A stretch of DNA of 64,000 bases, taken from Actinokineospora inagensis DSM 44258. GTDB taxonomy: Bacteria > Actinomycetota > Actinomycetes > Mycobacteriales > Pseudonocardiaceae. Below are positions 41,331-47,300 of the stretch, piece after piece; within the stretch, counting starts at the first letter, position 1; each line of letters begins with the position of its first letter. The stretch is taken from the NCBI RefSeq assembly GCF_000482865.1, contig NZ_AXWW01000039.1:1-64000 (forward strand). Direction: 5' to 3'. The notes under the pieces were generated by a model. The model did no database searches. It worked only from the letters and a program-made list of their open reading frames with translations, and had not been told where the DNA came from. The position numbers and the translations under genes were made by a program.

Positions 41331-44300
41331 ATGTCCGCCGCCCGGTTAGCGAACCCAACCCTGTTGGATCTCTTCGCCGCGCACGTCGCCCGTGATCCCG
41401 ACGCACCCGCGTTGGTGTCGGCGGCGGGTCCGGTCGGCTACCGGGAGCTGGACCGGTGGTCGGACCGGGTGGCCAGGTCGCTGGTCGCCCGGGGTGCCGG
41501 GCCGGAGAAGCTGGTCGCGCTGATGCTGCCGCGGTCGGTGGAGATCGTGGTGGCGCAGTTGGCCGTGCTCAAGGCCGGTGCCGCCTACCTGCCGGTCGAT
41601 CCGGCGTACCCCGCCGAGCGGGTCGCCGACATGCTCGACGACGCCAAGCCGCTGCTGGTCGTCCGCGATCTGTCCGAAGTGGACGAAGAGGCGACCGCCG
41701 TCCTGCCGGGGCGACCGTTCGTGGACCAACCGGCGTACGTCATCTACACGTCCGGGTCGACCGGTCGACCCAAGGGCGTCGTCGTCACCCACCGCGGTCT
41801 GGCGACCTTCGCGCTGGCCGAGGTGGAGCGGTTCGACGTGCGGCCGGGTGACCGGGTGCTGCAGTTCTCCTCGCCGAGCTTCGACGCGTCCGTCCTGGAA
41901 CTCTGCATGGCCTACGCGGGCGGCGCCGCGCTCGTCGTCCCGCCGCCCGGACCGCTGCTGGGCGACCAGCTCGCCCAGGTGTTGCGGGAGCGTGAAGTCA
42001 GCCACGCGCTGATCCCCCCGGTCGCGCTCTCGACCGTGCCCGATGTCGACCTGCCCGCCTTCCGCACCCTGATCGTCGGCGGCGACGCCTGCTCGGCCGA
42101 CCTGGTCCGCCGGTGGGCGCCGGGCCGGGCGATGATCAACGCCTACGGGCCGACCGAGTCGACCGTGGTGACCTCGTGGAGCGACCCGCTGGTCCCGTCG
42201 CCGGACTCGCCGCCGATCGGCCGGGCGATCACCGGTACCCGGGTGCACGTCCTCGACGACGACCTGCGCCCGGTCCCCGACGGCACCGCGGGCGAGTTGT
42301 ACGTCACCGGTCTCGGTGTCGCCCGCGGCTACCTCGACCGCCCCGGCCTCACCGCGCAGCGGTTCATCGCCGCGCCGGGCGGCGAGCGCATGTACCGCAC
42401 CGGCGACGTGGTGCGCCGCGCGGCGGACGGGAACCTGGAGTTCGTCGGCCGCGCCGACCACCAGGTGAAGATCCGCGGCTTCCGCATCGAGCCCGGTGAG
42501 ATCGAGGCCGAGCTGGCGAAGGACCCGACGGTGGGCCGCGCGGTCGTCGTGCCGCGCACCGAGACCGGGCTCAAGCGGCTGGTCGCCTACGTCGTCCCCG
42601 GCGTGGGTCGCCCCGAGCCGCACGCGCTGCGGCAACTGCTGGTCGACCGGCTGCCCGCGCACATGGTCCCCGCCGCGATCGTCGTGCTGGACGCGTTCCC
42701 GTTGAGCCCCAACGGAAAGCTCGACCGGGCCGCACTGCCCGCGCCGACCGTGGGTGTCGTCGCCGAGGACCACGTCGCCCCGCGCGACGAGCGGGAGCGG
42801 GTGGTCGCGGGCATCTGGGCCCAGGTGCTCGGGGTCGACGCGGTGGGCGCGGGTGACGACTTCTTCGCCCTCGGCGGCGACTCGATCCTCGCCGTCCGCG
42901 CGCAGACCCGGATCGCCGCCGCGTTCGGCACCGCGCTCTCCGGTCGGGCGATCTTCGACGCCCGCACCGTCGCGAGCCTGGCCGCGTTGTTGCCCGAGCA
43001 GCCCGCCGAGGGGACCGTGATCCCGCCGGTGCGCCGGGACCGGCCGCTGCCGCTCTCGCCCGCCCAGCGCAGGCTGTGGCTGGAGGACCAGACCACCGGC
43101 GGCCCGGTCAACAACACCGGCTTCGCGCTGCGCCTGACCGGCCCGCTGGACCGCCCGGCCCTGCGCCGCGCGCTGGACCGGGTCGCGGGCAGGCACGACG
43201 CGCTGCGCACCACTGTGGACGGTCCACACCAGTCCGTCGCCGACTTCGCGAGCCTCCCGCTGGCCGAGACCGCGACGACCGACCTGGACGCCACCCTCAC
43301 CGAACTGCTCACCGAGCCCTACGACCTGGCCAAGGGACCGCTCACCCGGGCCACCCTGGTCGAGGTGGCCGCCACCGAGCACGTGCTGGTCGTCGCCCAG
43401 CACCACATCGTCACCGACGGCTGGTCGGCGTCCCTCCTGGTCGACGAGCTCACCGCCTTCTACACCGAGGAGACCGGCGGCCCCGCCGCGACGCCGACCG
43501 ATCCCGCCGTCCAGTACCCGGACTACGCGGCGTGGCAGGCGGACCAGCCGGACCCGGACATCACGCACTGGCGCAACCGGCTCGACGGGCTGCTGCCGCT
43601 CGACCTGCCCACCGACCGGCCCCGGCCGCCCGTGCGGGTCGGCTCCGGCGGCGTGCACACCCACGACCTGCCCACCGACCTCGTCGCCCGGCTCGCCACG
43701 CTGAGCACCGCGCACGAGGCGACCCTGTTCATGACCCTCGCCGCCGCCGTGAAGGTGCTGCTCGCCTCGCACGCCCGCACCAGGGACGTCGCCGTGGGCA
43801 CGGTCCGCGCGGGCAGGCCGGTGGCCGAGTTGGAGTCGGTGGCCGGGTTCTTCGTCAACACCCTGGTCCTGCGGTCCCGGATCGACCCGACGCTGCCGTT
43901 CAGCGACTTCCTGACCGCCGTGCGGGAGACCGTGCTCGACGCGTTCGACCACGACGACGTCCCGTTCGACCGGATCGCCGACCAGTGCGCCACCGTCCGC
44001 GACCCGAGCCGGACCCCGCTGGTCGACGCGGTCGTCGCGCTGCAACAGCCGCTGGTGTCCACTCCGGACGCCGGTGGGCTGCGCTGGGCCGACCACCCGC
44101 TGCCCCGTCCGGCCGCCCGGTTCGACCTGACCGTGGAGTTCTGGCCGTCGGCCGACGGCATGCGGGTGGTGCTGGAGTACGACACCGCGCTGTTCGACGC
44201 GGGCCGGATCGTCGCGCTGGCGAAGGAACTCGCCGCCCTGCTCAAGGTCGTCGCGGCCCGGCCGGACAGTCCACTGGGGACACTGGTCGACCTGCCGGAG

Positions 44301-47300
44301 GGGCAGGTCGCCACCGTGCCCGCGCCCCGGGTCGAGCCGAACCGCTACCTCGCGCCGCGCACCCCGGTCGAGGCGACCCTGGCCGCCGTGTTCGCCCAGG
44401 TCCTCGGCGCCGACCGGGTCGGGGTGCGGGACAACTTCTTCGCCCTCGGCGGCGACTCGATCCTGAGCATCCAGGTGGTCACCGCCGCTCGCGCCGCCGG
44501 GCTGGTGCTGACCGCGCGGGACGTGTTCGTGCACCAGACCGTCGCCGCGCTCGCCCCGCACGTCACGGCCGTCGCCGACGACACCGCGCCGGACGAGGGA
44601 CCGGTCTCCGGGCCGGTGCCGCTCACCCCGATCCAGCGCTGGTTCTTCGACACGCACAGCGCGCACCCCAACCACTTCGACCAGACCTGCGTGATCGACC
44701 TCGGCACCCCGGTCCAGCCGGACGCCCTGGCCAAGGCGATGTTCGCGCTGATCGAGCACCACGACGCGCTGCGCATGCGCTACACCATGGCCGCCGACTG
44801 GTCGCAGGAGAACGCCCCGGTCGGTGAATCCGGCTCGGTCGGCGAGCACAGCCCGATCTTCCTGGTCGAGCTGCGCGGCGACACCACCGTCCAGTTGCGC
44901 GCGCACCACCTGGTGGTCGACGGCGTGTCCTGGCGGGTGCTCGCCGAGGACCTGCGGACCGCGCACCGGCAGGCACTGGCGGGGGAGCGGATCACGCTGC
45001 CGCGCCGCACCACCTCCTTCCGCGACTGGGCGACCAGGCTCGCCGAGCACGCCGTGGCGGGTGGGTTCGCCGACGAGGCCGACTACTGGGCCGGTGTCGC
45101 CGCCCCGGCCGACGTGCCGCGCGACCTGGACGGCGCCAACACGACCGCCTCCGAGCGCTCGGTCACGGTCACCCTGACCGAGGACGAGACGACCGCGCTG
45201 CTGCGCGAGGTCCCGGACGCCTACCGCACCCAGGTCAACGACGTCCTGCTGACCGCCTTCGGCTCCGCGCTCGCCGACTGGACCGGCCGCCGGGAAACCC
45301 TTGTCCACCTTGAAGGTCACGGCCGCGAAGACCTGTTCGACCGCGTCGACCTGTCTCGCACGGTCGGCTGGTTCACCACGATGTTCCCGGTCGTGCTGGG
45401 CGGCTTCGCGAACGGTGCGAACGGTGACTGGGGCGGTGCGCTCAAGTCGACCAAGGAGACCCTGCGCGCGATTCCCCGGCGCGGCATCGGCTACGGCGCC
45501 CTGCGCCACCTGGTCGGCGCGGACCTGCGCGGCGACGCCGATGTGTCGTTCAACTACCTCGGCCGCTTCGACGGCACCGCCGAGCTCGCCCTCGACGCGC
45601 ACCCGGAGTCCCCGCGACCGCACGTGCTCGACGTCGTCGGCCAGGTCGAGCGGGGTCGGCTGGCGATCACCGTGTACTACAGCGAGAACCTGCACCGCGC
45701 CGCGACCGCGACCGCGTTCGCCGAGTCCATCGCCGCCGCCCTGCGCGGTATCGTCAAGCACTGCGCCGAGGGTGGTCGCGGCCGGACCCCGTCCGACTTC
45801 CCGCTGGTCCGGTTGGAACAGTCCACTGTGGATAGCCTGGCCCGGCCGGGTGTGGTGGACATCCTGCCGCTGACGCCGATGCAGGCGGGCATGGTGTTCC
45901 ACGGCCTGTCCCAGTCCGGCCAGGGCGCCTACTTCCAGCAGACCGCGTTCGTGCTCGACGGTGTCGCCGACCTCGACCGGCTCGCGTCGGCCTGGCGGCA
46001 GGTGGTCGACCGGGCGGCGATCCTGCGGTCGTCGATCGTCTGGGAAGATGTGCCCGAGCCGCTGTCGCTGGTGCACGCCCAGGTCGACCTGCCGATCACC
46101 CGGGTGGACTGGACCGGCGGCGACCGGGAGGCGTTGCTCGCCGCCCTGCTCGACGCCGACCACCAGCAGGGCTTCGACCTCGCCGTCCCGCCGCTCATGC
46201 GGCTCACCCTGGCCACGCTCGACGACGGCCGGGTGCAGGTGCTGTGGACGTTCCACCACGTGCTGCTCGACGGCTGGAGCATCTTCGGCGTGCTGTCCGA
46301 TGTGGCCGAGGCGTACGCGGGCCGACCGCTGCCGGACCGGCCGGACTTCGCCGAGTACCACCGCTGGCTGGCCGGGCAGGACCCACTCGCCGCCGAGGAC
46401 CACTGGCGAACTGTTCTGTCTGATGTGGACGCTCCGACGCCGCTGCCGTTCGACCGGCCGCGCGCCTCGGTCGCCCAACCCACCACGTCCGCCCGAACCG
46501 AGGTCGCGCTCACGGCCGCGGAGACGGCTCGGCTGGCCCGGTTCGCCAAGGACCACCGGCTGACCCTGGGCACCGTCGTGCAGGGCGCGTGGGCGCTGAT
46601 GCTCGCCCAGTACAGCGGTCAGCGCCAGGTGTGCTTCGGCGCCACGGTGTCCGGTCGTCCGGCGGACGTGCCCCAGGTCGAGGCGATCACCGGCATGTTC
46701 GTCAACACGCTGCCGGTGGTGACCACGGTGGATGGACCGGTCCCCGGGTGGCTGGCCGGGATGCAACGCGCCCAGGTCGAGTCGCGCGCCTTCGAGCACA
46801 CCCCGCTGACCCGGATGCACGGCTACAGCGCGGTCGCGGGCGGTATCGACCTGTTCGACTCGGCGGTGATCTTCGAGAACTACCCGGCCGACGGCCCCGC
46901 GCTCGGCGAACTGACCGCGGTGGAGAGCACCACCTTCCCGCTGAGCGTCACCGTCTACCCGGGTGCTGAGCTGCGGCTCCTCTTCGGCTACGAGCCCGGC
47001 CTGTTCGACGCCGAGACCATCGACGCGTTGTCCACCCACCTGTGCCGCCTGCTCGCCGAACTGATCGCCGACCCCGACCGCCCGGTCGCCGCCATCCCCG
47101 CGCTGACCGGGGACGACCGCGAGCGCGTCCTGGTCGAGTGGAACGACACCGCGGTCGACGTCCCGGACACGACCCTGGTCGCGTTGCTGGCCGAGCAGGC
47201 CGCCCGAACGCCGGACGCGCAGGCGCTGGTGTGCGGGGACCGGCGCTGGACCTACGCCGAGTTCGACGCGGACGTCAACCGGCTCGCCAACTGGCTGGTC

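What the first reader, a model, noticed from the sequence alone, without database searches (positions are those of the whole stretch)
44290..44580. NRPS module without an adenylation domain (C-T-E) inside a multimodular synthetase
In the first NRPS the C domain ends near 44290 (GTLVDLPEG) and the next carrier protein (LGGDSILSI, Ser1043) begins near 44364. The ~25 residues between, [16 protein letters not shown], look exactly like a normal A10-to-T linker, as if the whole A domain had been removed cleanly. The C, T and E core motifs are all intact, so the module should still condense and epimerise. Either A1 loads two carriers, or an A domain acts in trans, or the module is skipped. A-less modules served in trans are known in a few pathways, but one that also carries an E domain as the second module is unusual.
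Basis: partly seen in the sequence, partly recalled or inferred. Interest (0 to 1): 0.8.

Follow-up and report, generated by a model that had tools for sequence, protein, structure and literature searches.

The report
Peptide synthetase module missing its activator
One station of a soil bacterium's peptide assembly line lacks the part that picks its amino acid and most likely borrows the picker of the station before it; related bacteria still carry a worn stump of the lost part.

Summary
The synthetase at 41310-48863 (Actinokineospora) reads A1-T1-C2-T2-E2-C3-A3-T3; C2 and T2 are joined by about 16 residues without an adenylation (A) domain. It is not an assembly collapse: orthologues cover the whole protein in 10 of 16 genus genomes, two of them single-contig, and 45 clusters extracted from 390 family genomes all lack A2. 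In 28 of the 45 (a Saccharothrix-type group, Lentzea, Allokutzneria) an A_sub-like stump survives between C2 and T2, without A_core or the A10 lysine; in 17, the window included, even that is gone. C2, T2 and E2 motifs and the D-accepting C3 signature are intact in 45 of 45, so the module is very probably used. The contig has no free-standing A domain. Best explanation: A1 charges both T1 and T2, giving an L-X1/D-X2 pair in a predicted cyclic octapeptide released by a SurE-like cyclase. The same A-T-C-T-E logic is reported for mannopeptimycin (PMC8949500, passage), so this is a new member of a known kind; the series of stages of A-domain loss is the novel part. Which A domain loads T2 is inferred, not shown.

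The parts
39612..40952 (+). stand-alone penicillin-binding-protein-type (SurE-like) thioesterase/cyclase, 446 aa
   Evidence: Pfam Beta-lactamase 1.3e-48; best PDB sequence match 6ksu 1.1e-65, then 8fek 'PBP cyclase Ulm16' 1.2e-61; that 6KSU is SurE is from PMC11735501 (passage). A homologue lies upstream of NRPS1 in 10 of 10 genomes whose flanks were read (44-77% identity).
41310..48863 (+). NRPS1, A1-T1-C2-T2-E2-C3-A3-T3; likely true start ATG 41331
   Evidence: start by comparison with orthologues
41352..42779 (+). A1, pocket code DALLIGAVV(K); proposed to load T1 and T2
   Evidence: code DALL[I/V]GAVV in 45 of 45 clusters (44; the window)
42774..42989 (+). T1 carrier, LGGDSIL
43047..44300 (+). 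C2 condensation domain, HHIVTDGWS
   Evidence: 269 bits; motif kept in 45 of 45
44301..44348 (+). A-less junction, about 16 residues where an A domain would lie
   Evidence: by pattern no A core motif and no A10 lysine between C2 and T2 in 45 of 45
44349..44564 (+). T2 carrier, Ser at 44457-44459
   Evidence: lowest dN/dS of the module in 13 g7 relatives (0.11)
44610..45770 (+). E2 epimerisation domain, HHLVVDGVS and EGHGR
45858..47111 (+). C3, signature of C domains that follow an E domain (HHVLLDGWS)
   Evidence: HHVLLDG in 45 of 45; 42-46% identical to C5 and C7 (which follow E) against 31-36% to C2, C4, C6 and C8
47190..48545 (+). A3, code DVWHLSLVD(K), serine by recall
   Evidence: end by the A10 motif
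48621..48809 (+). T3 carrier
48887..64000 (+). NRPS2, runs past the window to contig position 67849 (6320 aa): C-A-T-E-C-A-T-C-A-T-E-C-A-T-C-A-T-E, no TE domain found
   Evidence: outside the window followed by an MFS exporter and an MbtH gene

Best explanation
The second module lost its A domain in an ancestor of several genera of Pseudonocardiaceae and stays functional because the A domain just before it on the same chain, A1, activates one amino acid and charges both T1 and T2 (shown: anatomy and conservation; inferred: the loading). C2 joins the two residues (inferred), E2 inverts the second (inferred from intact motifs), and C3, of the D-accepting kind, passes L-X1/D-X2 on. NRPS2 extends the chain to eight residues, the last with an E domain, and the SurE-like cyclase closes the ring between an N-terminal L and a C-terminal D residue (inferred by analogy). 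The loss was stepwise: first A_core, leaving an A_sub-like stump without the A10 lysine that is still under purifying selection in the Saccharothrix-type group, and then, at least twice, the stump.
For: A-less or stump-bearing module directly behind A1-T1 on one chain in 45 of 45 extracted clusters; C2, T2, E2 and C3 signatures intact in 45 of 45, A core and A10 lysine in 0 of 45. No free-standing A on the window's 84-kb contig; none in the flanks of 8 of 10 relatives. A1 code the same up to I/V in 45 of 45 while A3 takes at least five codes. In all 3 Allokutzneria clusters A3 is missing too, and in 3 others (G060, G069, G213) A3 has A1's code, as if A domains redundant with A1 are expendable. 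In 2 of the 3 intact relatives that lie nearest in the tree (both Amycolatopsis) A1 and A2 share one pocket type, though not A1's type here. A-less modules met in G011 (second locus), G185 and Solihabitans also follow an A-T on the same chain. Precedents: mannopeptimycin (PMC8949500, passage); CmnA-A1 loads the carrier of A-less CmnI, shown by mass spectrometry (PMC12400406). Tree: 35 A-less or stump rows group together (quick tree, SH-aLRT 99); one origin of 'no stump' is rejected, p-AU 0.0076 (the group was tested after a first tree had been seen).
Against: In other intact relatives A2 has another code than A1: L077 (the third near one), Crossiella, Lentzea terrae and Streptomyces. T2 is no more like T1 (51%) than other carriers are (42-62%). 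The A4 code is nearly constant as well (DTED[M/L]GFVD in 10 of 11 read), so a constant A1 code is weak evidence. The genome holds free-standing A and A-T proteins elsewhere, and on C12 an 898-aa protein with C-T and no A of its own lies beside free-standing A proteins, an A-less layout that does not follow an A-T on its chain. The searches for the spread of the two A-T proteins failed on the machine. A1's substrate and the product are unknown.
Confidence: 0.62

Rival explanations
1. A free-standing A or A-T protein encoded elsewhere in the genome charges T2 in trans, as SyrB1 or the A-T proteins of ramoplanin and enduracidin do.
For: Own genome has A-T proteins of 769 and 810 aa and A-only proteins of 533-580 aa outside the cluster, and a C-T protein beside such A proteins on C12; 5 of 6 relatives show A-bearing frames under 920 aa in a listing that was cut. 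Trans-loading is established elsewhere (PMC8949500, passages).
Against: None on the window's contig; in the flanks of 10 relatives an A-like frame outside the synthetases in only 2, not the same one. The 542-aa A protein has no match at E 1e-80 in 11 of the other 15 genus genomes and in 4 only matches of 45% identity or less in frames of 1278 aa or more (up to 90 candidates a genome were scored). The two A-T proteins and the 533- and 580-aa proteins were not tested.
Confidence: 0.2
2. T2 is charged by A7 or A8 of NRPS2, which carry the same pocket code as A1, across the two chains.
For: A1, A7 and A8 share DALLIGAVV; CmnA-A1 loads a carrier on another protein (PMC12400406).
Against: No positional reason to prefer them; A1 is next to module 2 on the same chain in 45 of 45.
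Confidence: 0.08
3. The module is skipped: T1 hands its residue straight to C3 and the product is a heptapeptide; module 2 is a passive remnant.
For: An A-less module cannot load itself; skipping is known in other assembly lines (recalled).
Against: Catalytic motifs of C2, T2 and E2 kept in 45 of 45, T2 dN/dS 0.11 in 13 g7 loci, and C3 keeps the signature of a C domain fed by an E domain in 45 of 45.
Confidence: 0.08
4. Assembly collapse between similar A domains removed about 1.4 kb.
For: None found; reads were not available.
Against: Same junction in 10 of 16 genus genomes, two of them single-contig, and an A-less junction or eroded stump in 45 clusters.
Confidence: 0.01

Closest known systems
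Mannopeptimycin synthetase, reported as C-A-T-E-C-A-T-C-T-E
   Same: A-T followed by C-T-E on one chain; one A domain reported to serve both T domains (PMC8949500, passage); a cyclase relative, MppK, is named in PMC8399532 (passage).
   Different: There the A-less module follows an elongation module; here A1-T1 starts the line. Pocket codes and sequences were not compared. No stump is mentioned in the passages read.
Capreomycin CmnI and viomycin VioI (A domain-less modules)
   Same: A-less module whose carrier is charged by another module's A domain; MbtH involved (PMC12400406, two of three parts read).
   Different: CmnI is a separate protein of T and C domains loaded in trans, no E domain described; its carrier has an N-terminal extension.
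Yersiniabactin HMWP2 and fungal siderophore synthetases (layout recalled; systems named in PMC12400406)
   Same: One A domain serves several carriers.
   Different: Other domain types; no relationship tested.
PBP-type cyclase clusters (surugamide SurE, ulleungmycin Ulm16, cyclofaulknamycin FlkO)
   Same: Stand-alone PBP-type cyclase; such cyclases join an N-terminal L to a C-terminal D residue (PMC11735501, passages).
   Different: No A-less module mentioned in the passages read; cyclofaulknamycin's FlkP is A-PCP-C-A-PCP-E-C-A-PCP, the plan of NRPS1 with its second A intact (PMC8399532, passage).

Membership tests
A domain-less NRPS module | C and T present, no A between them | tested here: met
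A domain-less NRPS module | remaining catalytic motifs intact and conserved | tested here: met
   45 of 45; dN/dS of C2, T2, E2 0.31, 0.11, 0.36 in 13 g7 loci
mannopeptimycin-type iterative A (A-T-C-T-E) | A-T immediately before C-T-E on one chain | tested here: met
mannopeptimycin-type iterative A (A-T-C-T-E) | one A domain charges both carriers | not testable with these tools
   needs a loading assay
mannopeptimycin-type iterative A (A-T-C-T-E) | product has the same residue at both positions | not testable with these tools
   product unknown
trans-A system (SyrB1, ramoplanin type) | free-standing A or A-T gene in the cluster | tested here: not met
   none on the contig; A-like frame in the flanks of 2 of 10 relatives, not shared
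PBP-type (SurE) cyclase cluster | stand-alone cyclase homologous to SurE | tested here: met
PBP-type (SurE) cyclase cluster | NRPS ends with E and lacks a TE domain | tested here: met
   NRPS2 ends 67849 right after the E domain

The most novel reading that the evidence does not exclude
A whole family of synthetases shows A-domain loss in stages: the catalytic A_core is cut out at the hinge, an A_sub stump lacking both key lysines is kept for a time under selection as a structural platform for the carrier, then lost, while one upstream A domain takes over two (in Allokutzneria possibly three) positions. This would be a natural, repeatable route by which assembly lines turn A domains into multi-carrier loaders.
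Probability: 0.4. Interest if true: 0.7.

Novelty: new member of a known kind. Interest (0 to 1): 0.45.

Why it matters
If A1 serves two carriers, product prediction from gene order is wrong for this conserved octapeptide family, and the 45 clusters give stump and stump-free versions of one module, with A-intact relatives beside them, to ask what an A_sub does for its carrier and how an assembly line can be shortened without losing function, a practical question for synthetase engineering.

Tried and rejected
Assembly artefact: rejected by conservation. Trans A in the cluster: looked for, not found on the contig; a weak A-like frame upstream in G001 (53 bits) and one in G247 (207 bits) are not shared. 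Same code in A1 and A2 of intact relatives: mixed (two Amycolatopsis yes, L077, Crossiella, Lentzea terrae and Streptomyces no). T2 convergent on T1: inconclusive. Pocket codes in print: 0 papers of the held library contain the strings searched, so substrates of A1 and A4-A6 stay unassigned; serine for A3 is recalled. Kineochelin (Actinokineospora, PMC13238742) checked: another cluster, six modules. Lentzea genome paper (PMC9120177, passages): nothing on this layout in the passages shown. The live source of the stump could not be told: best blastp hits of eight stumps spread over many A domains at 42-52% identity. The Solihabitans A-less module (L043) lies outside the main clade in the 88-row tree but a common origin is not excluded by the 36-row tree.
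Full report
What is there. The window lies on contig C34 (84,449 bases) of a genome whose named relatives are Actinokineospora. NRPS1 (41310-48863) is A1-T1-C2-T2-E2-C3-A3-T3. C2 ends at 44300, T2 starts about 44349, and the serine that carries the arm is at 44457-44459. Pfam finds nothing in 44250-44402. NRPS2 runs from 48887 to contig position 67849 and ends in an E domain. Upstream is a PBP-type cyclase whose best solved matches are 6ksu and 8fek; downstream an MFS exporter and MbtH. 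PBP-type cyclases join an N-terminal L to a C-terminal D residue (PMC11735501, passages), which fits a line that starts with A1-T1 and ends with E8.

It is conserved, so it is real. NRPS1 is present over nearly its whole length in 10 of 16 genus genomes, at 67-84% identity in the nine others, two of these single contigs. A search of 390 family genomes gave matches at E 1e-150 in 87; from these I extracted 45 clusters with a contiguous or short-gap match (10 Actinokineospora, 2 of group g5, 22 of g7, 3 of g8, 5 of g22, 3 of g25). The other 42 matching genomes were not all read by handle; of five that were, G196 and G197 have a full A2, G240 shows only full A domains, G192 gave no readable unit, and G185 has another A-less line. 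By equal contig lengths g7 contains a Saccharothrix record, g8 Allokutzneria, g22 Kibdelosporangium and g25 Lentzea.

The missing domain left a fossil. In 17 of the 45 the gap between the C2 and T2 profile matches is 12-15 residues; in 28 it is 87-101. The extra stretch is a worn A_sub: of four tested, Pfam AMP-binding_C hits two above its cut-off (37.1 and 35.6 bits) and two below it (20.8 and 14.6). It begins at motif A8, just behind the hinge, and lacks the A10 lysine (0 of 45 keep it, by pattern); the A8 lysine is arginine in 27 of 27 stumps that the pattern could read, of 28. Both lysines are named as key residues in PMC11253843 (passages). In 13 g7 loci the stump's dN/dS (Nei-Gojobori) is 0.36, against C2 0.31, T2 0.11 and E2 0.36; in six full-length loci it is 0.41 against 0.28 for the live A_sub of A1 and of A3 and 0.25 for the A1 core. 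So the stump is relaxed but still under purifying selection; a platform role for T2 is my inference.

History. On a quick tree of C2+T2+E2 (88 rows of 113 collected) 35 A-less or stump rows form one clade (SH-aLRT 99), with Kibdelosporangium (no stump) and Actinokineospora plus g5 (no stump) apart in it. Holding the no-stump rows together is rejected (36 rows, p-AU 0.0076; tested after the first tree was seen). Loss of the core once and of the stump at least twice is the simplest reading; roots are not inferred, and Solihabitans (L043) may be the same or a separate loss.

How it most likely works. C2, T2, E2 and C3 signatures are intact in 45 of 45, and C3 resembles C5 and C7, which follow E domains, more than C2, C4, C6 and C8. 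This argues that T2 is loaded and its residue inverted. The nearest A domain is A1 on the same chain. Its pocket code is DALL[I/V]GAVV in all 45 (44, the window), while A3 varies (the window's): DVWHLSL[V/I]D in 15, DFWN[I/V]GMVH in 11 and a variant reading in one, DVFSIAMVH in 8, DVFSVAAVY in 4, A1's own code in 3 (G060, G069, G213), and no A3 at all in the 3 Allokutzneria clusters. Codes are read by pairwise alignment to three templates whose positions I recalled from GrsA; substrate names are recalled. No free-standing A domain is on the contig. The flanks of 10 relatives (about 18 kb a side; 6 kb upstream for G082) show the cyclase in 10 of 10, the exporter in 10 of 10, MbtH in 5 of 10 (frames under 150 aa were not scanned), and an A-like frame outside the synthetases in 2 of 10, not the same one.

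What speaks against it. In several intact relatives (L077, Crossiella, Lentzea terrae, Streptomyces) A2 has another code than A1; in two Amycolatopsis both have one pocket type. T2 is not especially T1-like. A4 codes are nearly constant too (10 of 11). Free-standing A and A-T proteins exist elsewhere in the genome, and an 898-aa C-T protein on C12 has no A on its own chain but free A proteins beside it; only one free A protein could be checked for spread. So the A1 reading is the most likely, not a demonstrated, mechanism.

Comparison. One A serving two carriers in an A-T-C-T-E layout is reported for mannopeptimycin (PMC8949500, passages only; the original paper is not held). Loading of an A-less module's carrier by another module's A domain was shown by mass spectrometry for capreomycin (PMC12400406, two of three parts read). 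Cyclofaulknamycin's FlkP has the plan of NRPS1 with its second A domain intact (PMC8399532, passages). Of 21 papers found in a search for truncated A domains I saw 12 in the listing, none by title or abstract start on an A_sub-only stump; of 791 found in a search with Actinokineospora I saw 20, none by title on this cluster; kineochelin is another cluster (PMC13238742, abstract and passages). This does not exclude an earlier description.

Noticed in passing
L150, L151, L156 (Allokutzneria-type genomes G082, G081, G080): NRPS1 lacks A3 as well as A2: A-T-C-stump-T-E-C-T; position 3 also needs a borrowed A domain.
   Followed up: partly
L164:5554-15606 (minus strand), genome G011: A second synthetase in an Actinokineospora reads A-T-C-T-E-C-T-C-A-T, with two A-less modules in a row.
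   Followed up: partly
L165 (G185): C-A-T-E-C-A-T-C-T-E, the layout reported for mannopeptimycin, with a tyrosine-like first code (recalled).
   Followed up: partly
L043 (Solihabitans fulvus): A-T-C-T-E start of a different, larger synthetase; the A loss may be independent of the main clade.
   Followed up: partly
L162:2851-5544 (minus strand; contig C12 of the window's genome): 898-aa protein with C-T and no A on its chain, beside free-standing A proteins of 533 and 580 aa.
   Followed up: no
   Followed up: no
window 23558-25366: Protein with a VMAP-M2 domain (vWA-MoxR associated), followed by a 1006-aa frame without Pfam match (26282-29302).
   Followed up: no
L010:13507-15393 and 16753-19095 (contig right of the window): TIR-domain protein and an HTH-NB-ARC-TPR protein some kilobases beyond the cluster.
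   Followed up: no
window 13741-17082: 1113-aa galactose-oxidase/kelch-type protein with fibronectin III domains.
   Followed up: no
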